Assembly (NCBI RefSeq): GCF_000265295.1
Contig: NC_018002.1
Location: 1,054,001-1,118,000 of the forward strand
Direction: 5' to 3'
DNA length: 64,000 nt
Origin: Sulfurospirillum barnesii SES-3
Lineage (GTDB): Bacteria > Campylobacterota > Campylobacteria > Campylobacterales > Sulfurospirillaceae
Below, piece by piece: positions 2,402-62,001 of the stretch. The notes under the pieces were generated by a model. It had not been told where the DNA came from, searched no databases, and was given only the letters and a program-made list of their open reading frames with translations. The position numbers were made by a program, and so were the translations under genes. Every line of letters begins with the position of its first letter. Within the stretch, counting starts at the first letter, position 1.

Positions 2402-2413
2402 TTTACATGTAAA
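2402..2413. repeat. TTTACATGTAAA palindrome, copy 1
   Basis: Full 12-mer in the short gap between the EAL regulator and thiD, about 20 bp before the thiD start. Confidence 0.95.
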
Positions 2414-2432
2414 ATATTTGGATGAGGAAAAA

Positions 2433-3236
2433 ATGAAACATTGTTTAACAATTGCAGGTTCAGATAGTAGCGGAGGGGCTGGAATTCAAGCTGATTTAAA
2501 AGCATTTAGTGCCAATGGTGTTTTTGGAATGAGTGTGATTACGGCTATTACTGCACAAAATACGCAAGGTGTCTTTGATGTACAAGATGTGAGCTCTTCC
2601 ATGATAGCCCATCAAATCGAAGCTATTTTTGATGACATTCGTGTTGATGCCATTAAGATTGGTATGGTCTCACGCCTTGAAACGATTGAAATCATTGCAA
2701 AAACACTCAAAAAATACTCACTCCCACCCCTTGTCATAGACCCTGTTATGGTTTCAAAAAGTGGATACAACCTTTTAGCCCCCCAAGCTCAAAAAGCGCT
2801 GATTGAGTTTTTAGTGCCGATGGCAACCCTGCTGACTCCCAATATTCCTGAAGCCGAAGTGATGGTTGGTTATAAGATTAACACGCTAGCGCTTATGAAA
2901 CGAGCTGCAGAGGATTTGCACACACTAGGATGCACGTATGTTTTGGTGAAAGGGGGGCATTTAGAAGAAGATGCCACGGATGTTTTATTTGATGGAGAAT
3001 CGTTTTATTGTTTACATGTAAAGCGTTTAGAGACCAAAAATACGCATGGCACAGGGTGTACACTTTCCTCCGCCATTGCTGCAAATTTAGCAAAAGGTAT
3101 GCGTGTAAAAGAAGCCGTAGAAGAGGCAAAAGCATACATCACTGAAGCCATAACACATGGATTTGCCCTTGGAAAAGGGGTTGGACCTGTTCACCATTTT
3201 TACGCTTTGTATAAAAAAGCGGGCATAAAGGAGTAG
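2433..3236 (+). CDS. thiD: hydroxymethylpyrimidine/phosphomethylpyrimidine kinase
   Basis: ThiD phosphorylates HMP and HMP-P to give HMP-PP, the pyrimidine half of thiamine. The N-terminus carries the ribokinase-like signature AGSDSSGGAGIQADLKAF, and the C-terminal part has the TKNTHGTGCTLSSAIAAN anion-hole motif with the catalytic base region. I place the start at the ATG at 2433 because GAGGA lies just upstream; an in-frame TTG at 2418 is the alternative. thiM follows 4 bp downstream, so the two are an operon for salvage and synthesis of both thiamine halves. No TPP riboswitch is visible in the 41-bp upstream gap. Confidence 0.95.
   Translation: MKHCLTIAGSDSSGGAGIQADLKAFSANGVFGMSVITAITAQNTQGVFDVQDVSSSMIAHQIEAIFDDIRVDAIKIGMVSRLETIEIIAKTLKKYSLPPLVIDPVMVSKSGYNLLAPQAQKALIEFLVPMATLLTPNIPEAEVMVGYKINTLALMKRAAEDLHTLGCTYVLVKGGHLEEDATDVLFDGESFYCLHVKRLETKNTHGTGCTLSSAIAANLAKGMRVKEAVEEAKAYITEAITHGFALGKGVGPVHHFYALYKKAGIKE
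3011..3022. repeat. TTTACATGTAAA palindrome, copy 2
   Basis: Inside thiD, read as Leu-His-Val-Lys in FYCLHVKRL. Confidence 0.95.
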
Positions 3237-3240
3237 GGTT

Positions 3241-4044
3241 ATGGATATAAAAACACACATACACGAGGCTTTTGCTGCCCTAGAAAACACCACACCCCTG
3301 ATTCATCATATTACCAATTATGTGACGGTTAATGAGTGTGCCAATGTGGTGTTAGCCATTGGTGCTTCACCTATTATGGCAAGTGAAATCAGTGAAGTAG
3401 CTCAAATGGTAGGATTTGCTCAGGCATTGGTCTTAAATATTGGTACCGCCAATACCCAGAGTATTGAGGCAATGCTCGAAGCTGGACGTGCGGCGAATGC
3501 TCAGGGTATTCCTGTGGTTTTAGACCCTGTAGGTGTTGGTGCAACAACCTTTCGTCGCCAAAGCGTGGCACGGTTGCTAGAGCAGATTCGCTTTAGTGTG
3601 ATTCGTGGCAATATGGCGGAGATGAAAACCTTAGCAGGATTGGAAACCAAAAGTTCGGGGGTGGATTCACTTGAAGATGAAAGTGATGCGCTTAGTATTG
3701 CTCAGGGATTAGCTAAAAAATTAAACTGTGTGATAGCCATTACAGGCAAAGAAGATGTTGTGTGTGATGGCACACACGCGTATACACTTTGCAATGGTGA
3801 TGAAGCACTAAGAAGTGTGACAGGCACAGGATGCATGAGTAGCTCATTGATTGGCAGTTTTTTAGGAGCAACAAACAATCCTTTGCTCAGTGCTATTTTA
3901 GGAATTTCTACTATGTCTCTTGCTGGCGAATTGGCAGATAAAAGTAAAGGTATGGGTACTTTTCGTATTTCATTATTTGATAGGATAAGCAAAATGAATG
4001 CTTCATTGGTGCTTGAAAAAGCACGTATATATTTAAAAGGCTAA
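3241..4044 (+). CDS. thiM: hydroxyethylthiazole kinase
   Basis: ThiM phosphorylates hydroxyethylthiazole for thiamine salvage. The 267-residue length and the sequence are typical: PLIHHITNYVTVNECANVVLAIGASPIMASE at the N-terminus (substrate pocket), VLDPVGVGATTFR in the middle, and SVTGTGCMSSSLIG near residue 195 with the catalytic Cys. A GGAG Shine-Dalgarno lies 8 bp upstream of the ATG. The gene is translationally close to thiD. A thiE-like gene is encoded separately near 38.5 kb. Confidence 0.95.
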   Translation: MDIKTHIHEAFAALENTTPLIHHITNYVTVNECANVVLAIGASPIMASEISEVAQMVGFAQALVLNIGTANTQSIEAMLEAGRAANAQGIPVVLDPVGVGATTFRRQSVARLLEQIRFSVIRGNMAEMKTLAGLETKSSGVDSLEDESDALSIAQGLAKKLNCVIAITGKEDVVCDGTHAYTLCNGDEALRSVTGTGCMSSSLIGSFLGATNNPLLSAILGISTMSLAGELADKSKGMGTFRISLFDRISKMNASLVLEKARIYLKG

Positions 4045-4047
4045 GCA

Positions 4048-4914: not shown

Positions 4915-5655
4915 GTGAAATTTGAATTTTTAGGAACAGCCGATACAGGTGGAATTCCTCTGCATTTGTGTTCGTGTGCGGTGTGCGAAAAGGCACGTTT
5001 AGAAAAAACAACCAATCGCTCTACCAGTGCCTTTTTGGAGTTAGAAGATGGCAGTGTCATTTTATTTGATGCAGGGTGTGATACCTTAATGGATCGCTTT
5101 AATACAACACCCATTCGAGCGGTTTTTTTGACCCATTTTCATGCCGACCATGCTTTGGGATTGATTCGTTTACGCAAATCCGCACAAAAAGTGATTTGCT
5201 ACACACCCAATGATACAGAGGGCTTTGGGGATTTATTAGTGCATAAGAATAACATCGAGTACCGCATTTTAGCTCCCTTTGAAAAAGTGTGTGTTGGGGG
5301 TGTTGAGATTGTGGCGACACCTTTGCTTCATTCCAAAGCGACACACGGTTTTGTACTCTTTACATGTAACAAACGGGTGGCGTATTTGACCGATTGTGGA
5401 GGGATGAGCGAAGAGAGCCTTCTCTTTTTGAAAGCACAAAAACTGGATTATCTCTTTTTAGACGCTGCGTATACGCCTTCGTTTGATTCTGATAAACATC
5501 TGAATTGGGAGAGTGCACACACTTTGATTGAGCGTATCGCACCTAAAGAGGGCTACTTAATTCATGCCAGTTGCCACACCCTTTTAGGTGTTTTAAAAAA
5601 AGGTGTGAATTTAACGTATCCTTACATCGAGCAAGGATTTAGCATAGAGGTTTAA
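4915..5655 (+). CDS. PhnP-like metallo-beta-lactamase fold hydrolase
   Basis: A soluble MBL-fold hydrolase of about 246 residues, with THFHADHALGL as the zinc-binding motif, DAGCD upstream of it, and later His and Asp ligands (LLHSKATHG, LTDCGG). The N-terminal FLGTADTGGIPLH followed by CSCAVCEKAR matches the extra zinc-binding Cys cluster of PhnP, the phosphoribosyl cyclic phosphodiesterase family. No other phn genes are nearby, so the substrate is unknown. The GTG at 4915 with AAGGA upstream is the preferred start; a TTG at 4894 is the alternative. It abuts the convergent msrA gene with no spacer. Confidence 0.82.
   Translation: MKFEFLGTADTGGIPLHLCSCAVCEKARLEKTTNRSTSAFLELEDGSVILFDAGCDTLMDRFNTTPIRAVFLTHFHADHALGLIRLRKSAQKVICYTPNDTEGFGDLLVHKNNIEYRILAPFEKVCVGGVEIVATPLLHSKATHGFVLFTCNKRVAYLTDCGGMSEESLLFLKAQKLDYLFLDAAYTPSFDSDKHLNWESAHTLIERIAPKEGYLIHASCHTLLGVLKKGVNLTYPYIEQGFSIEV
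5360..5369. repeat. TTACATGTAA palindrome, copy 3
   Basis: Inside the PhnP-like gene, read as Phe-Thr-Cys-Asn in LFTCNKRV. Confidence 0.95.
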
Positions 5656-6626: not shown

Positions 6627-8453
6627 TTAGATGTTTTTCAATTGCATTTCATAGCTTTCAAAAAGCTCATCGTGCTTTACATGTAAAGATTCAAATTGTT
6701 CATAAAGCCCATTTAAAGTCTCTTCATCGCTTTTTAGTTCTTTAGAGAGTCTTTGCAATTCTCCAAGATCATTGCCCGAAGCAATCTGTATTAGGGTTTC
6801 ATTTTTGGTTTTGATTGTCTCTTCAAGCTGCATAATCTTTGCTTCACATTTTTCTATCTCTTTTTTAAGTGGAGAGAGTTTGGCACTGCGTTCTTGAATC
6901 AGTTTCGTGCGTAGTTTTTTACTTTCGTTGTAGTCACTTTGTGCCACTTTTTTAGACGGGGCATCACTCTCTTCCTCCCAGCCAATTTTTTCTAAAAATG
7001 CTTCGTAGCCTCCATCAAAGAATTCTGCTTTATCGTGGTGAAAAATAATAAGCGCATCGGCTAAGTTTTTAAGCATCATCTCTGAGTGCGTCACTAAAAT
7101 GGTAGAGCCCTCAAAACTTTGAATCGCCTGTGTAAGCGCATCAATGGAGTACATATCAAGGTGGTTGGTTGGTTCATCCAAAAAGAGAAGATTGGCAGGT
7201 GTGGCAATGATTTTACCAAGCATGACACGGCTTCTCTCACCTCCTGAGAGAACAGAAATCTCTTTTTCCGCACTTTTGCCTGAAAACATCATTCCTCCAC
7301 AAATGGAGCGCACTTTGGTAATGCCTAAGAGTGGATCAACCTCATAAATTTCATCAATGATGGTATGTTTCAGGTTGAGTCTTTGAATGTTGGTTTGTCC
7401 AAAATGAGCAATAGCTGTTTCAGGATGAAAGGCAATATTGCCTTGTTGTAGAGGCAATTCGCCTGCTAAAACATTTAACAGGGTTGACTTTCCCTTACCA
7501 TTTTTTCCAATAATCGCAAGGCATTTACCTTTTTCAAGCTTGAATGAGAGATTTTGAAAGAGCGGCTTTTTTGCATCGTATCCAAAGCCAATGTTTTGCG
7601 CATCTAAAATAATTTTAGCAGGTGTTTTTTTGTAGTTAAAGGCAAAAGAGAGGCTACTTTCTTCCTCCAAATCATCCATTTCGCCCATTTTTTCAAGCTG
7701 TTTAGCTTTACTTTGTGCCATCACCGCTTTGGAAGCTTTGGCTTTTTGACGGGTAATAAAATCTTCTAGCTCAGCACGCTTTTTATCCAAATTGGCTTTG
7801 GTTTTAAGATAGCGCTCATCGTCTTCTTCAAGTTTGGCGTAGTACTTGCTACTGTTCCCCTCAATGAGGAGTAGGCTTTTGCGTCTAAGACCCATCGTGT
7901 GCGTCGTGACCGCATCCATAAAATCTCTATCGTGGGTGATAAGAATAAGCTCACCCTTAAACTCTTTAAGAAACTGTTTTAACCAACGCATGGAGACAAT
8001 GTCCAAATAGTTGGTCGGCTCATCCAAAAGAAGCATCGAAGGGTTTGTTGCTAGGAGTTTTACAAGGTTGAGTCTGATTTGATACCCACCTGAAAAGCTC
8101 AGAGGATCTTTGTCTAAATCTTCGTGGCTAAAACCCAGTCCAAAAAGCATTTTTTCAATGATATAAACATTAAATGCTTCATCACCATGCAGGGCTGAAG
8201 CACACTCTTCACGGACGGTTTTATGGGTAAAATGAAGGTGCTGACGTAGGGTGCCAATGGTATAGTTTTTAGGAATAAAAACTTCACCACTGTCGGCTTC
8301 TTCTTCACCTAAAAGAATTTTAAACAGGGTGGATTTCCCTGAACCATTACGTCCAACAAGGCCTATTTTATTGCCTCTATTAAGCGTAAAACTGATGTTT
8401 TCAAAAAGGGTTTGTTCTCCAAAATGTTTAGAGAGGTTGGTAACTTGAATCAT
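6627..8453 (-). CDS. ABC-F family ATPase
   Basis: A 608-residue soluble protein with two ABC domains in one chain and no membrane segments, which is the ABC-F architecture (ribosome-associated translation factors such as Uup, YheS and EttA). Walker A motifs are GRNGSGKST near residue 36 and GKNGKGKST near 317. Signature motifs are FSGGYQIRL and LSGGERSRV, and both Walker B sites are followed by EPTN. A charged linker lies between the domains and a long Lys/Glu-rich coiled coil forms the C-terminus, most like Uup/YheS. The exact subfamily is not decided. Confidence 0.9.
   Translation of the reverse strand: MIQVTNLSKHFGEQTLFENISFTLNRGNKIGLVGRNGSGKSTLFKILLGEEEADSGEVFIPKNYTIGTLRQHLHFTHKTVREECASALHGDEAFNVYIIEKMLFGLGFSHEDLDKDPLSFSGGYQIRLNLVKLLATNPSMLLLDEPTNYLDIVSMRWLKQFLKEFKGELILITHDRDFMDAVTTHTMGLRRKSLLLIEGNSSKYYAKLEEDDERYLKTKANLDKKRAELEDFITRQKAKASKAVMAQSKAKQLEKMGEMDDLEEESSLSFAFNYKKTPAKIILDAQNIGFGYDAKKPLFQNLSFKLEKGKCLAIIGKNGKGKSTLLNVLAGELPLQQGNIAFHPETAIAHFGQTNIQRLNLKHTIIDEIYEVDPLLGITKVRSICGGMMFSGKSAEKEISVLSGGERSRVMLGKIIATPANLLFLDEPTNHLDMYSIDALTQAIQSFEGSTILVTHSEMMLKNLADALIIFHHDKAEFFDGGYEAFLEKIGWEEESDAPSKKVAQSDYNESKKLRTKLIQERSAKLSPLKKEIEKCEAKIMQLEETIKTKNETLIQIASGNDLGELQRLSKELKSDEETLNGLYEQFESLHVKHDELFESYEMQLKNI
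6676..6687. repeat. TTTACATGTAAA palindrome, copy 4
   Basis: In the C-terminal coiled-coil part of the ABC-F gene, read as SLHVKHD. It has the full 14-bp form with C and G flanks. Confidence 0.95.
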
Positions 8454-8464: not shown

Positions 8465-8476
8465 TTTACATGTAAA
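8465..8476. repeat. TTTACATGTAAA palindrome, copy 5
   Basis: In the gap between the ABC-F start and the motB terminator hairpin. Confidence 0.95.
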
Positions 8477-10136: not shown

Positions 10137-10163
10137 TTATCGGTTAATACACGAAAAACTTTA
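10137..10163 (-). promoter_or_regulatory. sigma-28 (FliA) promoter of motAB
   Basis: On the minus strand the sequence reads TAAAGTTT, 11 bp, ACCGATAA. This matches the FliA consensus TAAAGTTT-N11-GCCGATAA at 15 of 16 positions with exact spacing. The first four bases of the -35 box are part of TTTACATGTAAAG palindrome copy 6. Confidence 0.85.
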
Positions 10164-10171
10164 CATGTAAA
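10160..10171. repeat. TTTACATGTAAA palindrome, copy 6
   Basis: In the motA/tetR divergent intergenic region. It carries full C and G flanks and overlaps the -35 box of the motA sigma-28 promoter. Confidence 0.95.
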
Positions 10172-11035: not shown

Positions 11036-12193
11036 ATGCTAGAAAGAAAAACGTATTTACGTTACATAAGTTATATGGTTGTTATGAGTTTAGGTGCGTT
11101 GAGTTTTAGTGGGTGCACACAAGAGTCAAAAAGTGCCCAAGCTTCTCATGCAATGCCCCCCTTAAGTGTTATGAGCTATAAAGTTGCTACTTCGGATATT
11201 CCTGTTGCTTTAGAGTACCCTGCGAAAGTTAAAAGCATTCAGCATGTCAATGTGGTTGCCCGTGTGAATGGTATTTTAGAGCAGAAATATTTTATGGAAG
11301 GAAGTTTTGTTAAAGCAGGCGATATGCTCTACCAAATCGACTTTGAGCGCTATGAAGCCCTTATGCAAGAAGCCGCTGCTGATGTGGGGGTGAAAGAAGC
11401 GACCTTAAAAGAAGCTACCCGTAATTGGGAGAGGGTTAAAGTGTTATTTGAACAAGACGCTGTTTCGCAAAAAGAGCGTGATAATGCCCTCTCAGCGTTT
11501 GAGTCGGCTAGTGCTTCCTTAAAAGCATCCCAAGCGACCCTGAAAAAAGCGACCATTGATTTTAATTATACAAAGGTAAAAGCACCTATTTCAGGACTTA
11601 CTAGCCTTAATACTCAAGACATTGGCAGTTATGTGGGTTCTAGCAGTGATACGATGACATTAACGACAATTACGCAAATGGACCCTATGTATGTTGAGTT
11701 TTCACTCTCTGATATTGAGATGTTAAAAAAACGCTATGTGTTACCAACGGCGAATTGGAACAGTATTGAAAAGGCAAAATTGCCTGTGACTCTTAGCACA
11801 CCTGATGGTTCAACGTATGAGCATCAAGGGACGTTAGACTTTTTAGATAACCGTGTGGATGAGCAAACCTCCACCATAAAAGCCAGAGCAACGTTTGCTA
11901 ATCCAAAGCATCTGCTCATTCCTGGTCTTTTTGTGCGTGTTAATGTGGGCGGATTGGTCTATAAAGATGCCATTAGTGTGCCTCAAGAAGCGGTTTTACA
12001 AGACGCCACAGGTTCATTCGTCTATCTTGCCAAAGAGGGTAAAGCGCATAAAGTACCTGTTAAAATAGGAACGGTGCATAATGCGAGGTATGTTATTGAA
12101 GATGGTTTACATGTAAACGATGTCGTGATTACCAATTACCTTACAAAAATTCGTCCAGGCTCTGCCATTACGCTTGCAGAAGCAAAGGAATAA
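11036..12193 (+). CDS. cmeA: RND efflux periplasmic adaptor (CmeA/AcrA-like)
   Basis: A membrane fusion protein linking the inner-membrane pump to the outer-membrane channel. The N-terminus is a lipoprotein signal with the lipobox LSFSGC. It is followed by the lipoyl half-motifs (VVARVNGILEQKYFMEGSFVKAGDMLYQID), a coiled-coil hairpin at about residues 100-170, the second lipoyl half (TKVKAPISGL) and the beta-barrel and membrane-proximal domains. The ATG at 11036 is 6 bp after TGGAG. It is the first gene of a tight three-gene operon. Confidence 0.93.
   Translation: MLERKTYLRYISYMVVMSLGALSFSGCTQESKSAQASHAMPPLSVMSYKVATSDIPVALEYPAKVKSIQHVNVVARVNGILEQKYFMEGSFVKAGDMLYQIDFERYEALMQEAAADVGVKEATLKEATRNWERVKVLFEQDAVSQKERDNALSAFESASASLKASQATLKKATIDFNYTKVKAPISGLTSLNTQDIGSYVGSSSDTMTLTTITQMDPMYVEFSLSDIEMLKKRYVLPTANWNSIEKAKLPVTLSTPDGSTYEHQGTLDFLDNRVDEQTSTIKARATFANPKHLLIPGLFVRVNVGGLVYKDAISVPQEAVLQDATGSFVYLAKEGKAHKVPVKIGTVHNARYVIEDGLHVNDVVITNYLTKIRPGSAITLAEAKE
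12106..12117. repeat. TTTACATGTAAA palindrome, copy 7
   Basis: Near the 3' end of cmeA, read as GLHVNDV. Its flanks are G and C, so the palindrome extends to 14 bp with a different outer pair. Confidence 0.95.
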
Positions 12194-16742: not shown

Positions 16743-16752
16743 TTACATGTAA
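16743..16752. repeat. TTACATGTAA palindrome, copy 8
   Basis: Begins 3 bp after the cmeC stop codon, in the gap before the AraC gene. Confidence 0.95.
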
Positions 16753-19116: not shown

Positions 19117-19126
19117 TTACATGTAA
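19117..19126. repeat. TTACATGTAA palindrome, copy 10
   Basis: Between the alcohol dehydrogenase promoter element and the stop codon of the DUF4130 gene. Confidence 0.95.
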
Positions 19127-19131
19127 AGAGT

Positions 19132-19866
19132 TTACGCTTGAAATTCACTCATATACGTACGGTACAAAAGAGGCACTAAGTTCTTTTGCAGTTTGGGATT
19201 GTGTCTACTTTGAATAGCCGTGGCTTTAAAAAAGCGTTTCCACAGCTCTTTGACATGGGCTTCGTTTTGGGAGTAGATAGGTGCATCAAAAGAGGCAATG
19301 GAGTGAATCTGCATAGAACTTTCATCTTTCATCAAAGCCAAAGAGCGTCTCACATCGTGAATAATAAAAGGAATTTTGCCTAAGCGTTTGAAAAAATGCT
19401 CTCCTAAAAAAGGCAAAATGTTAAATTTTGTCTCGATTTTTGCGTAGAGTGTGCCATCTTCTAGCTCTTCAAAACGGGTGAAGCCGTACATTTTATGTAC
19501 CAAAGAGAGCAGTTCTTTTTCTAGGTTTTGAATGTAAAAAAGATGTGGATTGGTGATATTTCCAAGAAGTCTAGTGTTTTTAAATCCAGTGCGAATGTAC
19601 TCTAAAAGGGAACGTTCATGTGCTTTAGTGTCGCATAAAAAGATGTTAAAAATGGTGCGTTGGTTTTCTTTACTGAAGTGCTTTTTTAGAGCATTTAAGA
19701 CTTTGCTAGCTTTTACGTCATCACTAAAGACTTCATGAACGCTCTCAAACACCAACCTCTCAGGCATTTTCTTGATAATAGCGCTTACATGTAACTTTGC
19801 ATAGTACACTTCATACACCAGCGTTAAAAACCCCTCAAAACTCCCATCGTAGAACACTACCATCAC
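19132..19866 (-). CDS. DUF4130 protein (TIGR03915-type), putative DNA metabolism
   Basis: A 244-residue protein of the family described as radical-SAM-linked, probable DNA metabolism protein. It begins with the family pattern VVFYDGSFEGFLTLVYEVYY and contains VRRSLALMKDESSMQIHSIASFDAPIY and LWKRFFKATAIQSRHNPKLQKNLVP, with Arg-His-Asn-Pro near the end. In many bacteria this domain is fused to a uracil-DNA glycosylase-like domain, which is absent here: the protein ends at the DUF4130 boundary. Its start overlaps the radical SAM gene stop by 4 bp. Function is inferred only from family context. Confidence 0.82.
   Translation of the reverse strand: MMVVFYDGSFEGFLTLVYEVYYAKLHVSAIIKKMPERLVFESVHEVFSDDVKASKVLNALKKHFSKENQRTIFNIFLCDTKAHERSLLEYIRTGFKNTRLLGNITNPHLFYIQNLEKELLSLVHKMYGFTRFEELEDGTLYAKIETKFNILPFLGEHFFKRLGKIPFIIHDVRRSLALMKDESSMQIHSIASFDAPIYSQNEAHVKELWKRFFKATAIQSRHNPKLQKNLVPLLYRTYMSEFQA
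19785..19794. repeat. TTACATGTAA palindrome, copy 11
   Basis: Near the 5' end of the DUF4130 gene, read as KLHVSAI. Confidence 0.95.
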
Positions 19867-21114: not shown

Positions 21115-21126
21115 TTTACATGTAAA
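21115..21126. repeat. TTTACATGTAAA palindrome, copy 12
   Basis: In the divergent gap between the radical SAM gene and the nitroreductase gene, 19 bp upstream of the radical SAM start codon. Confidence 0.95.
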
Positions 21127-46839: not shown

Positions 46840-48133
46840 GGTCTTTTCCAAAGAATTTATAGAAGAAGCCTTCCATGATTTTAAGAGGTGCACGATTGAT
46901 GGCTAAGGCACCTTTTGGGATGTTTTTCGTGACGGTTGTTCCCGAAGCGATAATCACATCATCCGCAATCGTGACGGGTGCAACCAGTTGGCTATCGCTT
47001 CCGACAAAGACGTTTTTACCGATGATGGTTTGATATTTGGCTTTCCCATCGTAATTACATGTAATTGTCCCACACCCAATGTTGGTTCCCTCATCAATGC
47101 TTGCATCACCCAAATAACTTAAGTGTCCCGCTTTAACCCCTTTAAGGGTTGATTTTTTCACTTCCACGAAGTTTCCAATGTGTGTATCTTCAATGTACGA
47201 ATCAGGGCGAATACGTGCCATCGGTCCAATATCGGAGTTTTTGATGACGCTTTTTTCAATGACGCTATGTGCTTTAATGTGTGCATTCTCTAAAATTGTT
47301 CCTTTAAGTAAGCTCACACCGTTTTCGAGTTTACATTCACCGCTCATTTGCACATCCGCTTCAATGTAGATGGTTGAAGCAAGACGCATACTCACACCTT
47401 GTTCCATAAAACGGCGTTTAATGCGCTCTTGCATCAGCTCTTCGGCTTGAGAGAGGTGATATTTAGAGTTCACTCCCATAAAGGTTTTTTCATCCACAAA
47501 AAGGGCTTTAACGGTTTTGTTTTCAACATTCGCCAGTGCGATTAAGTCCGTGATGTAATACTCATTTTGGTTGTTTTGGTTGGAGAGTTTAGGAAGATTC
47601 TCTTGTAAAAAGTCGGTCTTAAAGAGGTACACACCCGCATTGACCGCAGTTACTTTTTTCTCTTCAACACTCGCATCTTTTTCTTCAACAATTTTTTGTA
47701 CATTTTGATGTGCATCCATAATGATGCGACCGTATCCAAAAGGCTCTTTACATGTAAATACACTCATAACAACGTCTGCATCAACGTGGGTAAAATTTTG
47801 CATATCATCCGCTTCAAGCAGAGGCATATCGCCGTTTAAAACCAGAACTTTTTCATGTTTTGGCACGACGCCACGAATAGCACCACCCGTACCAGGAAAG
47901 TTTTGATGGTCTTGAATGACATAGTGAATTCCTGAAAAGTAGCGATTCATCTTCTCTTGAACGAGGTCTGCTTGATGGTATAAAATCACATGAATGTCAT
48001 CGCTGATTTTTTGTGCCTCTTTGATGATATGATAGAGCATCTCAAAGCCGCTGATTTCATGAAGGACTTTTGGGAGTGTGGATTTCATCCGTGTGCCTAG
48101 TCCTGCTGCCATAATTGCAATCGAAATATTCAT
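46832..48133 (-). CDS. glmU: bifunctional GlcNAc-1-phosphate uridylyltransferase / GlcN-1-phosphate acetyltransferase
   Basis: A 433-residue enzyme giving UDP-GlcNAc for peptidoglycan and lipopolysaccharide. The N-terminal pyrophosphorylase domain begins IAIMAAGLGTRMKSTLPKVLHEISG, with VLNGDMPLL. From about residue 240 the left-handed beta-helix hexapeptide repeats form the acetyltransferase (IGPMARIRPDSYIEDTHIGNFVEVKKS, AGHLSYLGDASIDEGTNIGCGTITCNYDG). The two palindrome copies fall in both domains. Confidence 0.96.
   Translation of the reverse strand: MNISIAIMAAGLGTRMKSTLPKVLHEISGFEMLYHIIKEAQKISDDIHVILYHQADLVQEKMNRYFSGIHYVIQDHQNFPGTGGAIRGVVPKHEKVLVLNGDMPLLEADDMQNFTHVDADVVMSVFTCKEPFGYGRIIMDAHQNVQKIVEEKDASVEEKKVTAVNAGVYLFKTDFLQENLPKLSNQNNQNEYYITDLIALANVENKTVKALFVDEKTFMGVNSKYHLSQAEELMQERIKRRFMEQGVSMRLASTIYIEADVQMSGECKLENGVSLLKGTILENAHIKAHSVIEKSVIKNSDIGPMARIRPDSYIEDTHIGNFVEVKKSTLKGVKAGHLSYLGDASIDEGTNIGCGTITCNYDGKAKYQTIIGKNVFVGSDSQLVAPVTIADDVIIASGTTVTKNIPKGALAINRAPLKIMEGFFYKFFGKDHA
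47055..47064. repeat. TTACATGTAA palindrome, copy 24
   Basis: In glmU, read as TITCNYDG in the conserved acetyltransferase motif. Its flanks extend it to AATTACATGTAATT, a different perfect palindrome. Confidence 0.95.
47747..47758. repeat. TTTACATGTAAA palindrome, copy 25
   Basis: In the nucleotidyltransferase part of glmU, read as VFTCKEPF. Confidence 0.95.
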
Positions 48134-49015: not shown

Positions 49016-49025
49016 TTACATGTAA
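49016..49025. repeat. TTACATGTAA palindrome, copy 26, forming a stop codon
   Basis: Read on the minus strand in the frame TAC ATG TAA, it ends the 171-residue gene, as copy 18 ends rsmD. Confidence 0.95.
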
Positions 49026-49573: not shown

Positions 49574-51289
49574 TTAGCTGCTGAAGTTACTTTTAAAGGA
49601 AGACTCTTTAGCTATCACAATGGCTTTTTGTTTCTCTTTTTTGTGCATTTCTTTTTCCACAAAGAGGGGTTGGCGTGTTTTATAGTGAAGTCCTGTGTAG
49701 TACATGAGCGTCGAGTAGGTTGAAGGTGTGGGCGTAAAGACTTGGGCTTGTTCGGGGTTGATTTTTAAAACCTGTGACGCAAACTGTTTGAGCGAGTGCA
49801 TATGGCGCTCATCGCATCCTGGATGTGCCGCAATGAGGTAGTAGGTCAGAAACTGTTTTTTTCCCGATTCTTTGGAGAGTTTATCAAAGAGGGCTTTGAA
49901 CTCCACCAGCGCATTCTTACCAGGTTTACCCATCAGGCTCAAGATTTCATCGTCAATATGTTCAGGCGCAATTTTCATTTGACCACTGGTGTGATGTTCA
50001 ATAATCTCTTTGAGATACGTATAGCCATAGGCTTTATCCTCACTGATTAAATCGTACCGAATCCCTGATGCCACAAAGGCTTTTTTAATATGCGGGAGTG
50101 CTCTGATTTGGCGGAGTAAATCGAGCTGTTTTTTATGGGTTGGTTTAAGCGCTTTGCATATTTTTGGAAACATACAACTTTTTGTTTCACAGCTTCCTTT
50201 GCTCAGCTTTTTCTCACACTCATAACCGTACATATTTGCCGTAGGACCTCCTAAATCGGAGATGATTCCTTTAAAATCTTTATACGTTGCAAAATGTTTG
50301 GCTTCATTGACAATGGAAGCGGTTGATCGGGAACGAATGGTTCTGCCTTGATGCACGCTAATGGCACAAAAATTACACTCACCATAACAGCCTTGATGGG
50401 TTGAAATGGAAAATTTAATGGTCTCTAACGCTTTAATAGCACCCATTTTTTTGTAGTAAGGATGGGCATCTCGCATAAAAGGTAAAGCACTTACTTCATC
50501 CATCTCTTCCGTGGTCAAATAGAGTGCGGGTGGATTTTGAATGAGGTAACGGGTATCGACTTTTTGACAAAGACCTTTAGCGCTTAAAGGGTCATTATTG
50601 TGGTAAAAAAGGTCAAACATATCCATAAATTTGAGTTTATCTGCTACACATTCATCATGGCTTGGAAGAGCGATATACGACTCTTTTGGTTCTTTTGAAA
50701 GGTAGGAAAGTCCTTTTACATGTAAAGGTTTTTCACCGTTTTGAAGCGCATTGGCAAACTCTAAAATGCTCTTATCGGACATTCCATAGAGCAAATAATC
50801 GGCTTTGGCATCAAACAAAATGGGTTTTCGAAGTTTATTGCTCCAAAAGTCATAGTGCGTGACACGCCTTAGGCTTGCTTCAATGCCTCCTAACATAATG
50901 GGCGCAGTCTCTTTAAAGCATTGACGAATAAGATTTGTATAGACTAAACTGGCACGATCAGGACGTTTGTTGTTAATGCCTCCTGGCGTGTAGTCATCAG
51001 AATTGCGAAATTTTTTTGTTGCGGTATAGTTAGAAACCATGGAGTCTACACTACCGCCACTTACACCCCAAAAAAGCTTTGGCTCACCCAAACGTGAAAT
51101 ATCCTCTTTACATGTAACATCAGGCTGAGCGATAATGCCTACTGTATATCCTGCTTTTTCTAAAATACGCCCCACAACAGAAACCCCCATATATGGGCTA
51201 TCAATATATGCGTCTGAAGTAATGAGAATCACATCAAGTTGCTCCCATCCTCGTTGGTGCATTTCTTCTTGGGTTGTGGGTAAAAACAT
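49574..51289 (-). CDS. YgiQ-family radical SAM protein
   Basis: A protein of about 571 residues. It has an N-terminal cobalamin-binding-like region (WEQLDVILITSDAYIDSPYMGVSVVGRILEKAGYTVGIIAQPD), a radical SAM core with CYGECNFC, and long family-specific stretches (LGGIEASLRRVTHYDFWSNKLR, SISTHQGCYG, RSRSTASIVNEA, KIAPEHIDDEILSLMGKPG). The biochemical role of YgiQ is not known to me. The ATG at 51289 follows AGGA by 6 bp; the frame is open 15 codons further. Confidence 0.9.
   Translation of the reverse strand: MFLPTTQEEMHQRGWEQLDVILITSDAYIDSPYMGVSVVGRILEKAGYTVGIIAQPDVTCKEDISRLGEPKLFWGVSGGSVDSMVSNYTATKKFRNSDDYTPGGINNKRPDRASLVYTNLIRQCFKETAPIMLGGIEASLRRVTHYDFWSNKLRKPILFDAKADYLLYGMSDKSILEFANALQNGEKPLHVKGLSYLSKEPKESYIALPSHDECVADKLKFMDMFDLFYHNNDPLSAKGLCQKVDTRYLIQNPPALYLTTEEMDEVSALPFMRDAHPYYKKMGAIKALETIKFSISTHQGCYGECNFCAISVHQGRTIRSRSTASIVNEAKHFATYKDFKGIISDLGGPTANMYGYECEKKLSKGSCETKSCMFPKICKALKPTHKKQLDLLRQIRALPHIKKAFVASGIRYDLISEDKAYGYTYLKEIIEHHTSGQMKIAPEHIDDEILSLMGKPGKNALVEFKALFDKLSKESGKKQFLTYYLIAAHPGCDERHMHSLKQFASQVLKINPEQAQVFTPTPSTYSTLMYYTGLHYKTRQPLFVEKEMHKKEKQKAIVIAKESSFKSNFSS
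50715..50726. repeat. TTTACATGTAAA palindrome, copy 27
   Basis: In the YgiQ-type gene, read as PLHVKGLS. Confidence 0.95.
51108..51117. repeat. TTACATGTAA palindrome, copy 28
   Basis: In the YgiQ-type gene near its 5' end, read as DVTCKEDI. Confidence 0.95.
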
Positions 51290-57621: not shown

Positions 57622-59228
57622 TTTTAGCCTTTGATTTTTATTATATTTCAAAAAATGGCGTTTTAGAACATTTATTGAAAGAGATTGCCAATGATTTTTT
57701 AATAAGCCATAAAATACTTCGTCAAGATGATACTGTGAGATTTTTTGTTGAAGCGGATGAACATCGTTTGGGAGAGTTTGCAGACTATCTCTCGAATGCT
57801 TTGCCTTTGTCCATTTTCTTTAAATCTTCGTGTGTTGAGGTTGTCGCGTCCATGCCTTTGGGTGAAGAAAATATCGTAGCCACAGAGGCACCTGTACTCT
57901 TTACCCCAAAGCGATTAGCCCAAGCAGAAGACAACGAGCTTATTTTACGTGAAAATACCCAAGAGCTTTTACATGTAAAGAGTGCACGAGATCAAGAAGA
58001 TATGTATGAACGGGTTGCGACTTTGATTGACCAGGGCGAGTGTGTTAGGATTGAAACAGGGACGAACACTTATGTCATAGGAAAAATAGAACAGAGTCAT
58101 GCCATCAAAGATTTTGAAGTCATAGCCACTGATTTAAGTGTTGTGGAACGTATGGTCGTATGCCACGACAATGAAATGAAAGCATTGGCTTCTCTTGAGC
58201 GTCCTGCCATTCGCTTTAAAGTGAATGCTTTGTATGAGCAAAAAGGTATTTTAGACGCTAAACGTGTTTTTATGCGATTATCGGATGATTTATTTTTGTA
58301 TCCATTATGTAAAAAACTTTTTGAAAAAGGTATTTTCTTTCTTTTTAGAACAGATGCATGCCCTACACCCTATAGCGTCGTATGTGAAGCGGTTGAGGGC
58401 AACAATGCGCCTTTACATGTAAGCGTTTTAGAAAATGGGGTTATTTTACTTTTAAGAGGAATGCGTTACGCTTCAAGAGAACTCAAAGAGAGTTTAAAGA
58501 AATTTGATGAACCTTCTCATGCCTCTTTTGCTTCTTTGATGCAAGAACACCAGTTGTTTGATGTTGAATCAACGTGTTTTTATTTGAGCAAAACGCATGA
58601 TGATCGTATTATGCATTATTCAAAAGAGCATGGAATGCTTAATTTAGTAGGAATTTCTTTGCCTTCTTCCTTTGCAGAATTGTTTGCTCAGATTGAGCGT
58701 AGCAGTTCGAGTGCAAAACGTCTGGTGCAAAACTATCAAGAGCAGTTTCCTGAACTGTTTTCTCATGCAATGAATACCCCACTTCCACAAAAAGCACCTC
58801 AAAACATCTATACTTTATGGGGAATGGTCGCTGTGGTTTTAGGTTTAAGCAAAACAATAGAAAATGGTGCACAGAGGCTTATTGAAAATGCGGAAGATTA
58901 TGGTGGTGAAAAAGGCCCTCGTATTGATTATTATCTTGAAAAAGAAGATGCACTCAGCTCTGATTTTGATTATGTGCGCTTGTTTCGCAGTGGGATGAGT
59001 TATAAGCTTGCTGGCACGGATGATAATACGCTCAGTTTTGGTTATATGGAAAGTTTGGCGTATTTTATTACGGATATAGCAGATGCACACCGTGAAAATC
59101 TTTCTTCAAAAAATAGTGCATTAGGAGGCGCTTTGTTTGGGTATAAGCGTTTCAGTGAAATGGTTTTTAAAAACCTAAAACCCAATCATACGATTTGTTT
59201 TAATCGAGAATTGCCTATTGATCAGTAA
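57618..59228 (+). CDS. hydE: HydE-like protein of the hydrogenase operon, unknown function
   Basis: A 536-residue soluble protein. It occupies the position of hydE in the Wolinella and Helicobacter hydABCDE operons. I see no known catalytic motif. The C-terminal part (about 400-536, with LWGMVAVVLGLSK, FRSGMSYKLAGTDDNTLSFGYMESLAYFITDIAD and KNSALGGALFGYKRFSE) is the most family-like. The name is from position and size and does not imply the [FeFe]-hydrogenase maturase also called HydE. ATG at 57618 follows GGAGG. Confidence 0.78.
   Translation: MILAFDFYYISKNGVLEHLLKEIANDFLISHKILRQDDTVRFFVEADEHRLGEFADYLSNALPLSIFFKSSCVEVVASMPLGEENIVATEAPVLFTPKRLAQAEDNELILRENTQELLHVKSARDQEDMYERVATLIDQGECVRIETGTNTYVIGKIEQSHAIKDFEVIATDLSVVERMVVCHDNEMKALASLERPAIRFKVNALYEQKGILDAKRVFMRLSDDLFLYPLCKKLFEKGIFFLFRTDACPTPYSVVCEAVEGNNAPLHVSVLENGVILLLRGMRYASRELKESLKKFDEPSHASFASLMQEHQLFDVESTCFYLSKTHDDRIMHYSKEHGMLNLVGISLPSSFAELFAQIERSSSSAKRLVQNYQEQFPELFSHAMNTPLPQKAPQNIYTLWGMVAVVLGLSKTIENGAQRLIENAEDYGGEKGPRIDYYLEKEDALSSDFDYVRLFRSGMSYKLAGTDDNTLSFGYMESLAYFITDIADAHRENLSSKNSALGGALFGYKRFSEMVFKNLKPNHTICFNRELPIDQ
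57968..57979. repeat. TTTACATGTAAA palindrome, copy 29
   Basis: In hydE, read as LLHVKSAR. Confidence 0.95.
58413..58422. repeat. TTACATGTAA palindrome, copy 30
   Basis: In hydE, 445 bp after copy 29, read as PLHVSVLE. Confidence 0.95.
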
Positions 59229-59229
59229 T

Positions 59230-61446
59230 ATGCGACTGCTTTATCACATTGAAGGTATCGTACAAGGGGTTGGTTTTCGCCCTTTTGTCTATACCTTAGC
59301 CTTACGTTATAAATTAGGTGGATTTGTTTTAAACAATGAAAAGGGCGTAAACATAGAGGTGGAGGGTTTACAAGAGAGCCTAGAAGCATTTGAAAAGGCT
59401 TTGTTTCAAGAACTTCCCCCTTTAGCGCGTATTGATTTTTTCTCCAAAGAGGTGCTTACATGTAAACATGATGGAGGGTTTGAAATCCATCATAGCGAAG
59501 AAGGTGCCAATAAATCTTCTCTTATTTTGCCTGATATGTCGATTTGTGATGCGTGTTTGAAAGAGTTGCACGACCCACACAATCGTCGTTATCACTACTT
59601 TTTTACCAATTGTACCAATTGTGGCCCTCGCTATTCTATTACACGAACGGTACCTTACGACAGACCCAATACCTCTATGGCTCCTTTTGTGATGTGTCAA
59701 GCGTGTGAGCATGAATATACTAATCCCCTAGATAGACGCTATCACGCACAGCCCATTAGTTGTTCTCAGTGTGGTCCAACACTTTTTTTACGCTCCATTG
59801 AAGGAAAACTGCTTGCAACGAATGAACAAGCCTTGGTGCATTTAGGTGCACTGATTCGAGCAGGAAATATAGTTGCTATTAAAGGAATGGGTGGGTTTCA
59901 TTTGGTATGCGATGCGAGCAATGAAGCGGTTGTGGCACGCCTAAGGGAACGAAAACATCGCCCTTCTAAACCCTTTGCGGTGATGTTTAAAAATGTAGAT
60001 GCCATTAAAGAGGTGTGTGAGATAAGTGCAAATGAAGAGGAGGGGGTGTGTTCTCTTTTGCGCCCTATCGTTTTGGCTAAGCAGAAAAAAGAGAGCACAC
60101 TCATTGCCTCAAATGTGGCTCCAAGACTTGATAGATTAGGGGTTTTTTTGCCTTATACTCCTTTACATGTCATTCTTTTTGAATACCTAAAAAAGCCTAT
60201 TGTTGCAACCAGTGCAAACCTTTCAGGTGAGCCTATTATTTACGCATCAGATGTCTTAGTGGAAAAACTAAGCCATGTGGTGGAGTACTATTTGGATTAT
60301 AACCGAGAGATTGTCAATTCAAGCGATGATAGTTTAGTGCAATATGTGGGACATGAGCGTATCATGATGCGTGCTTCAAGGGGAATAGCCCCTCAAAGTT
60401 TTCGTCTTAAAAGCACGGATGAGCGTAGGATTTTGAGTGTTGGGGCGCATCAAAAAAATGCCATTGCCATTTATTTGAACCATCAAATGATTATCAGTCC
60501 TTATATTGGTGATTTGGACACGATAGCCTCGTGTGAGCTTTTTGAGGCGATGCTAGAGCGCTTCAAGCAATTTTATGATTTTGAACCTGAGCTCATTGTT
60601 GCGGATATGCATCCTTATTATTTTTCAACACAATGGGCAAAAAAACAGACCATTCCCTGTGTCTTTGTGCAACATCATTATGCTCATATTCTCTCTGTTA
60701 TGTGTGAGCATGCATTGGACGAAACGGTTTTGGGTATTGCGTGGGATGGCACAGGGTATGGCGATGATGGTAGTATTTGGGGTGGAGAATTTTTGGTATG
60801 CACTAAAGAGAGCTATGAGCGGGTGGCTTATTTTGAGCCATTTTACCTTTTGGGTGGCGATGCAAGCATTAAAGATACCAAACGCATTTTAGCGTCACTG
60901 TTATGGGATGTTTTAGGGGATGAAGCTGATGCTGTGTTGTGTAATTATTTTGATACGCCATCGCTTAAAAGACTCAAACAGGTCTATACCAAAAAAATAA
61001 ATGCCCCATTATGCTCTTCTGTGGGCAGACTTTTTGATGGCGTAGCGGTTTTGTGTGGTATGCATGAGCGTATTAGTTATGATGGAGAGAGTGGTTTATT
61101 GCTTGAAAGCTTGTATGATGAAACCATTCAAGAATATTATGAAGTAGCGCTTGAAGGTAAAAAAATTCTCTATAAATCCATGTTTGTAGAGATGCTATAT
61201 GATAAAGAGCCCATTTTAATTGCTTCAAAATTTCTCAATACACTGGTGCATATCTTCTTTGAAGTGACAAAACACTATCCGTATAAAAAAGTGATGGCAG
61301 GTGGAGTGTTTCAAAATCGCACACTTTTAGAACAATTGATTCAAAAAAGTCACGAAACGCTTTTCTTTCCACACCATATTGCGATTAATGATGGAGGTAT
61401 TTGCGTGGGGCAACTCTATAAAGTGTTACAAAATCGTACACATTAG
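59230..61446 (+). CDS. hypF: carbamoyltransferase HypF, [NiFe] hydrogenase maturation
   Basis: A 738-residue enzyme that activates carbamoyl phosphate for synthesis of the cyanide ligands of the active-site iron. Domains in order: acylphosphatase-like (IVQGVGFRPFVYTLA), two zinc fingers (CDACLKEL...CTNCGPRYSI and CQACEHEY...CSQCGP), YrdC-like (IKGMGGFHLVCDA, RKHRPSKPFAVMF), and a Kae1-like C-terminal domain (VQHHYAHILSVMCEH, GIAWDGTGYGDDGSIWGGEF, AGGVFQNRTL). It starts 1 bp after hydE, so it belongs to the same operon. hypA-E are not in the window. Confidence 0.95.
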   Translation: MRLLYHIEGIVQGVGFRPFVYTLALRYKLGGFVLNNEKGVNIEVEGLQESLEAFEKALFQELPPLARIDFFSKEVLTCKHDGGFEIHHSEEGANKSSLILPDMSICDACLKELHDPHNRRYHYFFTNCTNCGPRYSITRTVPYDRPNTSMAPFVMCQACEHEYTNPLDRRYHAQPISCSQCGPTLFLRSIEGKLLATNEQALVHLGALIRAGNIVAIKGMGGFHLVCDASNEAVVARLRERKHRPSKPFAVMFKNVDAIKEVCEISANEEEGVCSLLRPIVLAKQKKESTLIASNVAPRLDRLGVFLPYTPLHVILFEYLKKPIVATSANLSGEPIIYASDVLVEKLSHVVEYYLDYNREIVNSSDDSLVQYVGHERIMMRASRGIAPQSFRLKSTDERRILSVGAHQKNAIAIYLNHQMIISPYIGDLDTIASCELFEAMLERFKQFYDFEPELIVADMHPYYFSTQWAKKQTIPCVFVQHHYAHILSVMCEHALDETVLGIAWDGTGYGDDGSIWGGEFLVCTKESYERVAYFEPFYLLGGDASIKDTKRILASLLWDVLGDEADAVLCNYFDTPSLKRLKQVYTKKINAPLCSSVGRLFDGVAVLCGMHERISYDGESGLLLESLYDETIQEYYEVALEGKKILYKSMFVEMLYDKEPILIASKFLNTLVHIFFEVTKHYPYKKVMAGGVFQNRTLLEQLIQKSHETLFFPHHIAINDGGICVGQLYKVLQNRTH
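59456..59465. repeat. TTACATGTAA palindrome, copy 31
   Basis: In hypF, read as VLTCKHDG, between the acylphosphatase domain and the zinc fingers. A degenerate site at 60162-60171 in the same gene encodes PLHVILF. Confidence 0.95.
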
Positions 61447-61532
61447 TGAGAATTAAAATATTAATCTTTTTTTCTTTTGGGTTTTAAAGAATAGTAAGAT
61501 TAGAATAGACAAAAATCAATGAAGGATAGAAA

Positions 61533-61946
61533 ATGGATAAAATTATTCGATTTAGTGTTTCTTTGCCTGAAAAATTACTCGAAGAACTTGATAAAAAAGT
61601 CGATGCGCAAGGCTATGCATCACGCAGTGAATTTACACGAGATTTGATTCGTGAAAAGATTGTTAAAGATGATTGGCAAGATGATAATAGTGATGTTATC
61701 GGTGTTTTAACAATGATTTACACCCATCATCAAAACGAGTTGGTTCAAAAAATATTAGAGATTCAACACGATGCAAAAATTCATATTATGTGCAATACCC
61801 ATGTGCATGTGAGCCATGAAAATTGTTTAGAAACCGTCATGGTTACAGGAAAAGTGCCTGATGTAAAAGATTTTGCTCAAAAAATCGGTGGTCTTAAAGG
61901 GGTGAAATTTTGTAAATTAGTAGAAGCATCTATCCCCGCTTCATAA
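61533..61946 (+). CDS. nikR: nickel-responsive regulator NikR
   Basis: A 137-residue ribbon-helix-helix repressor. The N-terminal DNA-binding part is [38 protein letters not shown]. The C-terminal ACT-like domain has all four nickel ligands at E. coli spacing: the His in IQHDAK and, 11 residues later, HVHVSHENC. It follows the hydrogenase operon by 86 bp with AAGGA before its start. Probable targets are nickel uptake and hydrogenase genes, including the TonB receptor nearby (inference). Confidence 0.95.
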
Positions 61947-61958
61947 GCTTTTATAGAC

Positions 61959-61992
61959 TATGAGTCACTCACGTAGTGGCTCATACGTTTTT
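61959..61992 (+). terminator. Rho-independent terminator of nikR
   Basis: An 11-bp stem (TATGAGTCACT, loop CACGT, AGTGGCTCATA, one T-G pair) followed by CGTTTTT, 13 bp after the nikR stop codon. Confidence 0.8.
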
Positions 61993-62001
61993 ACATGTAA
62001 A
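61990..62001. repeat. TTTACATGTAAA palindrome, copy 32
   Basis: Directly after the nikR terminator stem, partly overlapping its T-run, and 6 bp from the end of the convergent permease gene. Confidence 0.95.

What the first reader, a model, noticed from the sequence alone, without database searches (positions are those of the whole stretch)
2402..62001. TTACATGTAA palindrome repeated 32 times across 64 kb
A hand count finds 32 exact TTACATGTAA sites; 16 are TTTACATGTAAA and at least 7 are the 14-mer CTTTACATGTAAAG. With A/T at 0.3 and G/C at 0.2 per base, chance predicts about 0.2 sites, an excess above 100-fold. Copies sit in intergenic DNA (8), across stop codons (2) and inside genes (22), with no flanking homology, so they are not copies of a mobile element. 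The density, about one per 2 kb, is like that of DNA uptake sequences in Neisseria and Pasteurellaceae or HIP1 in cyanobacteria. A symmetric site could mark DNA for uptake, bind a nucleoid or segregation protein, or be a methylation site. I know of no description of it.
Basis: partly seen in the sequence, partly recalled or inferred. Interest (0 to 1): 0.88.

Follow-up and report, generated by a model that had tools for sequence, protein, structure and literature searches.

The report
Genome-wide palindrome in helically phased DNA
A perfect 10-letter palindrome occurs about every 2,000 letters throughout this bacterium's chromosome and, on average, lies at the centre of some 280 letters of DNA whose pattern follows the turns of the helix, which suggests an undescribed system that bends the chromosome or, less likely, marks DNA for uptake.

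Summary
The window holds 32 TTACATGTAA sites (0.1 expected) and the 2.51-Mb genome 1,230 (reversed control 6). The core TACATGTA is enriched in 28 of 29 genomes of the family and in a few of a second family. Other palindromes (such as TATCATGATA, TAGTACTA) are enriched in some relatives.

On average, A/T content around the sites rises and falls with the helix (11.3 bp) out to about 140 bp on each side, in coding and intergenic copies. Pasteurellaceae uptake sequences showed no clear phasing beyond about 30 bp. Sites are kept: 34 of 40 are identical between two species, where random 10-mers are identical 19% of the time. Pairs two helical turns apart are over-represented (16 seen, 1.4 expected).

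Best reading: a chromosomal site bound by a dimeric protein that bends or wraps about 280 bp of supercoiled DNA. The protein is not identified. Extra ParB, HU and Lrp/AsnC copies do not track the motif, and a methyltransferase (CATG-specific by recall) tracks it only loosely. A DNA uptake sequence is the main rival. Four library searches aimed at the motif found no description.

The parts
2403..2412 (.). palindrome site, intergenic
3012..3021 (.). palindrome site, in ORF
5360..5369 (.). palindrome site, in ORF
6677..6686 (.). palindrome site, in ORF
8466..8475 (.). palindrome site, intergenic
10161..10170 (.). palindrome site, intergenic
12107..12116 (.). palindrome site, in ORF
16743..16752 (.). 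palindrome site, intergenic, 3 bases after an ORF stop codon
17315..17324 (.). palindrome site, in ORF
19117..19126 (.). palindrome site, intergenic
19785..19794 (.). palindrome site, in ORF
21116..21125 (.). palindrome site, intergenic
24556..24565 (.). palindrome site, in ORF; first of three within 89 bp
24599..24608 (.). palindrome site, in ORF; second of three
24635..24644 (.). palindrome site, in ORF; third of three
25743..25752 (.). palindrome site, in ORF
29803..29812 (.). palindrome site, in ORF
30020..30029 (.). palindrome site holding the TAA stop of the ORF 29454-30029 (+)
31700..31709 (.). palindrome site, intergenic, 11 bases before an ORF start
38553..38562 (.). palindrome site, in ORF
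40562..40571 (.). palindrome site, in ORF
42751..42760 (.). palindrome site, in ORF
46083..46092 (.). palindrome site, in ORF
47055..47064 (.). palindrome site, in ORF
47748..47757 (.). palindrome site, in ORF
49016..49025 (.). palindrome site holding the stop of the ORF 49016-49531 (-)
50716..50725 (.). palindrome site, in ORF
51108..51117 (.). palindrome site, in ORF
57969..57978 (.). palindrome site, in ORF
58413..58422 (.). palindrome site, in ORF
59456..59465 (.). palindrome site, in ORF
61991..62000 (.). palindrome site, intergenic between convergent ORFs

Best explanation
Each TTACATGTAA (best form CTTTACATGTAAAG) is the dyad of a chromosomal architecture site. A dimeric protein, not identified, reads the palindrome. 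About 280 bp of DNA centred on it is, on average over the sites, patterned so that AA/TT steps face the same side as the dyad every 11.3 bp and GC steps the other side, so the site lies at the middle of a bent or wrapped segment, most simply the apex of a supercoiled loop. About 1,230 such sites, one per 2 kb, would fix where the chromosome bends and thereby organise its supercoiling. Shown here: sites, density, dialects, average phasing and its extent, conservation, two-turn pairs. Inferred: that a protein binds, that the segment is bent or wrapped in the cell, and the role in supercoiling.
For: Phasing: over 511 sites of genus g1, A/T content has maxima near 12, 23, 34, 46, 56, 68, 78, 91, 102, 113, 125, 136 and 146 bp from the centre, best period 11.3-11.35 bp, and from about 150 bp on the amplitude is at noise level. 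In G000 the power is 0.0328 against 0.0039 +/- 0.0014 for sites displaced by multiples of 3 (0 of 2,000); it is not explained by the nearest turn (0 of 500). G000 coding sites are phased at 9-74 and 64-140 bp (0 of 500 each), intergenic ones too (0 and 11 of 500); 322 isolated g1 sites as well, to 140 bp. Over 12-140 bp AA/TT is in phase with the dyad and GC about half a turn out. Nearly the same phase is seen at 9-74 bp with the dialect ATCATGAT in G042+G141 (0 of 1,000) and in a second family (G102, G125, G180; 0 of 1,000). Conservation: 34 of 40 mapped G000 sites are identical in G065, and 34 of 42 the other way, against 19% of random 10-mers; 76 of 98 aligned site pairs are identical among six species at 69% flank identity. 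Pairs 19-23 bp apart: 16 against 1.4 expected. Inference: 11.3 bp against 10.5 for relaxed DNA corresponds to a superhelical density of about -0.07, near the value I recall for bacterial chromosomes, so the pattern fits DNA supercoiled inside the cell rather than linear DNA outside it.
Against: No binding protein found: one ParB in 34 of 36 genomes (second copies in G222 and G016), one HU in 34 of 36 (second copies in G171 and G240), Lrp/AsnC in 3 of 36 and not in G000. A species can change its palindrome, which is costly for an architectural protein. Phasing was not detected in G037 (29 sites) or G082 (12 sites), and beyond 64 bp not in any set outside the g1 core; with an earlier, less specific statistic the sets G042/G141/G037 and G102/G125/G180 reached only 2 and 28 of 1,000. 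Most of the 298 genomes show no excess of the patterns I counted. Phase-locking to curvature that was there already would look the same as selection for curvature.
Confidence: 0.45

Rival explanations
1. It is a palindromic DNA uptake sequence: the pilus-based competence machinery prefers DNA with the site, and sites accumulate by biased uptake and recombination.
For: Density, dialects sharing a core, patchy occurrence and A/T-rich segments one helical turn away resemble Pasteurellaceae uptake sequences. The scarcity of near-miss sites is the same in both when counted alike: excess single-mismatch sites per perfect site 0.12 here, 0.10 for the Pasteurellaceae sequence. Close pairs also occur there (17% of USS10 within 30 bp, PMC7811141, passages). 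ComEC is in 41 of 42 genomes and prepilins in 18 of 18. C. jejuni uptake is limited to DNA with CtsM-methylated sites (printed as RATTY in PMC8468864, passages).
Against: Phasing to 140 bp has no counterpart in 432 Pasteurellaceae uptake sequences beyond about 30 bp (one of six windows, upstream 50-94 bp, was borderline at 7 of 200). An 11.3-bp period would not keep relaxed linear DNA bent in one plane (argument). The two pilins beside comEC are only 37-59% identical to those of five g1 relatives and do not follow the dialect: G171 shares the dialect of G000 but one of its pilins is 37% identical. ComEC is equally present in motif-poor genomes.
Confidence: 0.25
2. It is a highly iterated palindrome like cyanobacterial HIP1: a by-product of a methyltransferase recognising its centre (CATG) and of methylation-directed repair.
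For: A D12 methyltransferase without a type II restriction enzyme among the 19 ORFs of its 20-kb surroundings. Within genus g1, genomes with it have more TACATGTA per Mb (14 with, 4 without; Mann-Whitney p = 0.025, not corrected for kinship), and three of the four without it (G078, G116, G231) have few perfect and relatively many single-mismatch sites. Elhai 2015 (PMC4390886) describes replaced palindromes with matching methyltransferases.
Against: 7 of 29 family genomes lack the enzyme, including G182 (1,201 TACATGTA), G091 (1,124) and G257 (887); G125 of the second family lacks it too; and it has relatives in genomes without the palindrome (112 of 298 genomes at E <= 1e-20, 22 of them in the family). 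Over the family p = 0.06. The enzyme tree has the dialects on two sides of one branch, but that branch is weakly supported (22/81) and groups mostly reflect kinship. A 4-bp methylation site explains neither 10-14 bp of palindrome nor 280 bp of phasing (argument).
Confidence: 0.13
3. The sites are preferred DNA gyrase sites, with the palindrome as cleavage core and the phased flanks wrapped by the gyrase C-terminal domains.
For: E. coli gyrase sites are symmetric with 10.75-bp periodic GC flanks, from about 17 to 66 bp (PMC6379681, passages); the excess of sites between convergent genes and just after genes fits places of positive supercoiling.
Against: The phasing here reaches about 140 bp, twice the gyrase footprint. 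The core preferences reported for gyrase (-4G, -2A, +1G, +4C, +6T, +8C; PMC12324340, passages; other species) do not match TTACATGTAA. A near-universal enzyme hardly explains exact dialects that differ between relatives.
Confidence: 0.07

Closest known systems
HIP1 and alternate HIPs of cyanobacteria (Elhai 2015, PMC4390886; abstract, sections 2.3, 2.5.3, 3.3 and part 1 of 3.4 read)
   Same: Short perfect palindrome at about 500 per Mb or more, replaced by other palindromes in some relatives.
   Different: AT-rich and 10-14 bp instead of GC-rich and mostly 8 bp; no consistent methyltransferase found; helically phased flanks (whether HIP1 has them was not tested: the record tried is not held).
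Uptake signal sequence of Pasteurellaceae (tested on loci) and DUS of Neisseriaceae (recalled)
   Same: Genome-wide density, sharp consensus, A/T-rich segments one helical turn from the core, close pairs, dialects (recalled).
   Different: Non-palindromic; flanking pattern ends within about 30 bp.
DNA gyrase motif (Topo-Seq, PMC6379681, passages)
   Same: Dyad symmetry with helically periodic flanks.
   Different: Degenerate core, 130 bp in all, 10.75-bp period; core preferences do not match.
parS / Noc sites (recalled)
   Same: 14-16 bp perfect palindromes with TTT at positions -6 to -4 from the centre (sequences recalled, not from a call).
   Different: Tens of sites (recalled), not 1,230; no ParB paralogue tracks the motif.

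Membership tests
DNA uptake sequence | Strong genome-wide over-representation at about one per 1-2 kb | tested here: met
   1,230 sites in 2.51 Mb, control 6
DNA uptake sequence | Competence machinery in the genome | tested here: met
   ComEC in 41 of 42 genomes, motif-rich or not, so it does not discriminate
DNA uptake sequence | Pilin receptor that follows the motif or dialect | tested here: inconclusive
   The two pilins beside comEC are hypervariable and do not follow the dialect; other prepilins were not compared
DNA uptake sequence | Site raises uptake of DNA | not testable with these tools
   Needs an uptake assay
Highly iterated palindrome (HIP) | Perfect palindrome at roughly 500-2,500 per Mb | tested here: met
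   490 per Mb for the 10-mer (just under) and 569 per Mb for TACATGTA in G000
Highly iterated palindrome (HIP) | Methyltransferase able to methylate the palindrome in every genome that has it | tested here: inconclusive
   D12 enzyme in 22 of 29 family genomes, absent from three with over 800 TACATGTA sites; other methyltransferase classes not searched; specificity not shown
DNA gyrase site | Periodic flanks ending near 66 bp | tested here: not met
   Phase-locked to about 140 bp in genus g1; in the other dialects shown only at 9-74 bp
DNA gyrase site | Core preferences of the cleavage domain | tested here: not met
   Compared by eye with PMC12324340 passages; the enzymes studied there are from other species
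ParB/Noc nucleoid-occlusion site | A ParB paralogue in the genomes that carry the sites | tested here: not met
   One ParB in 34 of 36 genomes; second copies in G222 and motif-poor G016
Lrp/AsnC DNA-wrapping regulator site | Lrp/AsnC protein present | tested here: not met
   PF01037 in 3 of 36 genomes, not in G000
Mobile repeat (REP, MITE) | Homologous flanks or a unit longer than the site | tested here: not met
   Base counts by position show no shared flank beyond about 8 bp except the phased A/T pattern

The most novel reading that the evidence does not exclude
A lineage of Campylobacterota organises its chromosome with a sequence-addressed counterpart of nucleosome positioning: about 1,200 palindromic dyads, each placed at the apex of a ~280-bp segment whose bendability is written at the helical repeat of negatively supercoiled DNA (11.3 bp) and read by a dimeric protein of unknown type. 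Relatives use different palindromes for the same architecture.
Probability: 0.3. Interest if true: 0.95.

Novelty: new variant of a known kind. Interest (0 to 1): 0.82.

Why it matters
If true, bacteria have a genome-wide, sequence-specific code for where the supercoiled chromosome bends, with about 1,200 fixed anchor points that can be mapped and mutated. That would make testable the long-standing question of how supercoiled loops are placed in bacterial chromosomes. If instead it is an uptake sequence, it is the first palindromic one I know of and the first in Campylobacterota (from memory; the four library searches aimed at the motif found no description). Either way it offers a natural comparison, because relatives have few sites or a different palindrome.

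Tried and rejected
Sharpness as an argument against uptake sequences: I first took the scarcity of single-mismatch sites (whole genome 284 against 87 in the control) as evidence against biased uptake. Counted the same way, the Pasteurellaceae uptake sequence is equally sharp (0.10 against 0.12 excess per perfect site; those loci were picked for holding a match), so the argument was dropped. For another Pasteurellaceae sequence the table in PMC1939737 (passages) shows a strong single-mismatch excess.

Methyltransferase as sole cause: rejected on presence and absence. Other methyltransferase classes were not searched, so an analogous enzyme in the genomes without it is not excluded. The CATG specificity is recalled from resemblance to NlaIII/HpyI-type enzymes and was not shown; NCBIfam and the PDB sequences gave no useful match. 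Scanning the other ORFs showed a type I modification and specificity gene pair about 4 kb away on the other strand; no type II enzyme was seen.

Loss-and-decay reading within g1 (few perfect sites and more near-misses in G078, G116 and G231, which lack the enzyme): suggestive, but G182 lacks it and keeps 934 perfect sites, G149 and G276 have a divergent copy and look decayed, and near-misses can also mean a different dialect.

Competence pilins as readers: rejected for the two beside comEC. Chi-like, single-strand, terminator or mismatch-repair roles do not explain phased duplex flanks (argument, not a test). ParB/Noc, HU/IHF and Lrp/AsnC were tested and not supported. Comparison with HIP1 flanks failed because the cyanobacterial plasmid accession I tried is not in the collection. 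Mapping of sites between G000 and G065 reached only 40 of 262 and 42 of 207 sites, because the other fetched stretches did not align. Whether curvature precedes the site could not be tested for want of enough site-less orthologues.
Full report
What is there. The window has 32 exact TTACATGTAA sites where shuffles give 0.1; 16 extend to TTTACATGTAAA and 7 to CTTTACATGTAAAG. The window is C1:1054001-1118000 of a 2,510,109-bp single-contig genome with 1,230 sites, against 6 for the reversed control. I take it for a Sulfurospirillum; the size equals what I remember for S. barnesii SES-3, but no call named the organism. Sites are spread evenly (20 stretches of 20 kb: 7-16 each, variance/mean 0.57; no trend with distance from the contig start). 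In 484 kb of this genome 262 sites split, on my ORF calls, into 121 in the phase reading Leu-His-Val, 60 in the phase reading Thr-Cys, 3 at stop codons and 78 between genes. Density is 0.41 per kb in genes, 4.2 between convergent, 2.8 between tandem and 1.3 between divergent genes; in tandem gaps the median site lies 23.5 bp after the upstream gene.

Relatives. Over 298 genomes of the order, genus g1 has 200 or more sites in 17 of 18 genomes (G078 has 49); the 11 genomes of other genera of the family have 7-657; a second family, f17, has a few cases (G102 367, G125 340, G180 96, G158 48, G201 31); all other genomes have 0-10. With the 8-bp core TACATGTA, 28 of 29 family genomes reach at least twice their control (the exception is G037), and G180 (848), G125 (611), G102 (608) and G201 (221) stand out in f17; no genome outside these two families exceeds 49. 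K-mer counts on samples gave dialects: CTTTACATGTAA(A) in G000 and G125, CTTACATGTAAG in G102, a mixture of CTACATGTAG and TTACATGTAA in G180 and G257, TATCATGATA in G042, G141 and G037. ATCATGAT counts 1,901 and 1,288 in G042 and G141 and 685 in G037, and its control TAGTACTA counts 1,188 in G082 and at most 125 elsewhere. So most dialects seen are centred on CATG, one on GTAC. Only these patterns and sampled genomes were examined; other dialects may exist.

Helical phasing. Pooling both sides of each site, A/T content rises and falls with the helix. In G000 alone (260 sites) the best period is 11.25 bp and the power 0.0328, against 0.0039 +/- 0.0014 when sites are displaced by multiples of three bases (0 of 2,000). 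Matching random positions on the nearest turn leaves 0.005 against 0.028 (0 of 500). Intergenic sites (77) and both main coding phases show it separately at 9-75 bp (each 0 of 1,000); at 64-140 bp coding sites reach 0 of 500 and intergenic sites 11 of 500. With 511 sites from G000, G065 and five further g1 stretches the local maxima fall at 12, 23, 34, 46, 56, 68, 78, 91, 102, 113, 125, 136, 146 and 158 bp; the amplitude falls from 0.083 to about 0.03 at 120-140 bp and is near noise from about 150 bp, so the last maximum is not to be trusted. Over 525 sites AA/TT steps are in phase with the dyad and GC steps about half a turn out; power relative to controls is 1.09-1.16 at 11.0-11.6 bp and 0.96-1.06 at the other five periods tried, and the excess is wholly phase-locked (residual 0.998). 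It holds for 322 sites more than 400 bp from the next. Seven of the nine other palindromes tried in G000 were weak; TTCATGAA (21 sites) and AAAGCTTT (38 sites) gave 0.019 and 0.017 at small numbers, for which I ran no displaced control. Nearly the same phase appears at 9-74 bp for ATCATGAT in G042+G141 (80 sites, 0 of 1,000), for TACATGTA in f17 (103 sites, 0 of 1,000), in genera g3-g5 (66 sites, 5 of 1,000) and in the g1 genomes with few sites (18 sites, 21 of 1,000); at 64-140 bp none of these is significant; G037 (29 sites), G082 (12), ATCATGAT in the g1 core (21) and motif-poor genomes (10) show nothing. The earlier statistic gave 2 of 1,000 for G042/G141/G037 together and 28 of 1,000 for G102/G125/G180.

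Comparators. In 74 Pasteurellaceae loci, 432 uptake-sequence cores show A/T segments at about +4 to +7 and +15 to +18 but no clear phasing from 30 bp on (windows 30-74, 50-94, 90-140 bp: 39, 98 and 63 of 200 downstream; 43, 7 and 59 of 200 upstream). E. coli gyrase sites have periodic flanks to about 66 bp (PMC6379681, passages), and gyrase core preferences (PMC12324340, passages) do not match the palindrome. Intrinsic curvature pins plectoneme tips (PMC6301789, passages). The period of 11.3 bp, against 10.5 for relaxed DNA, corresponds to a superhelical density near -0.07; this is my arithmetic and the reason I prefer an intracellular role. A 10-11 bp dinucleotide periodicity is common in genomes and need not mean bending (PMC7537859, abstract); what is special here is that it is locked to the sites.

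Evolution. Between G000 and G065, 34 of 40 mapped sites are identical and one has a single mismatch (34 of 42 and none in the other direction), while random aligned 10-mers are identical in 19% and single-mismatch in 29% of cases. Among six g1 species around the methyltransferase, 76 of 98 aligned site pairs are identical at 69% flank identity; 3 differ at one base, 12 at three to six bases, 7 are gapped (pairs are counted in both directions). Near-miss sites are scarce: the 1-mismatch excess per perfect site is 0.12-0.42 in 12 g1 genomes with a close methyltransferase and 0.29 in G182, but 0.71-3.4 in G276, G231, G116, G149 and G078; the Pasteurellaceae sequence is as sharp. Pairs 19-23 bp apart, two helical turns, number 16 against 1.4 expected; orthologous pairs of different species count separately.

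Candidate proteins. A D12 methyltransferase of 324 residues lies at C1:2225021-2225992, between an ArsRS-type two-component system and a transglutaminase-like gene; among the 19 ORFs of its 20 kb there is no type II restriction enzyme, but a type I modification and specificity pair lies about 4 kb away on the other strand. The methyltransferase has relatives in 22 of 29 family genomes and in 112 of 298 genomes overall. Against TACATGTA density the association is p = 0.025 in g1 and 0.06 in the family, not corrected for kinship, with clear exceptions (G182, G091, G257, G125). ComEC is in 41 of 42 genomes. The two pilins beside it are 37-59% identical between G000 and five g1 relatives where neighbouring genes have 55-94%, and do not follow the dialect. 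ParB, HU and Lrp/AsnC copy numbers do not follow the motif. The reader of the site is therefore unknown.

Literature. Four searches of the open library aimed at the motif (the literal string, 9, 79, 80) gave no description of it; subscription papers are mostly not held. The other six were for comparators. The nearest precedent is the highly iterated palindrome of cyanobacteria (PMC4390886; abstract, sections 2.3, 2.5.3, 3.3 and part 1 of 3.4 read). C. jejuni limits uptake to DNA methylated by CtsM (PMC8468864, passages), which keeps a methylated uptake mark conceivable here.

Verdict. The phase-locked context of about 280 bp is the new and most telling feature; it points to a protein that bends or wraps DNA at a palindromic dyad. 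I give 0.45 to a chromosome-architecture site, 0.25 to an uptake sequence, 0.13 to a methylation by-product, 0.07 to gyrase sites, and leave 0.10 for something else.

Noticed in passing
L014:15146-16084 (window genome C1:1640146-1641084) and equivalents in L341-L360: Two pilin genes beside comEC are only 37-59% identical between G000 and five species of the genus although neighbouring genes are 55-94% identical: they look hypervariable.
   Followed up: partly
G082 (f7, g11), whole genome: The palindrome TAGTACTA occurs 1,188 times, while no other of the 298 genomes exceeds 125: a GTAC-centred counterpart.
   Followed up: partly
G042 and G141 (f7, g35): ATCATGAT occurs 1,901 and 1,288 times, often as TATCATGATA, with flanks phased like those of the window's palindrome at 9-74 bp.
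   Followed up: yes
G020:C2:1692-2600: A second relative of the D12 methyltransferase (52% identical) lies on the second contig of G020, whose size I did not see; possibly a plasmid.
   Followed up: no
L121:14131-18121 (window genome C1:2229131-2233121): RhuM-family gene, type I modification gene and type I specificity gene; no counterparts in the other neighbourhoods compared.
   Followed up: no
window 24556-24644: Three palindromes within 89 bp inside one ORF.
   Followed up: no
L047 (G095 contig C1): A short tandem repeat with a unit near TAACCAA; its 10-mers occur 11 times each.
   Followed up: no
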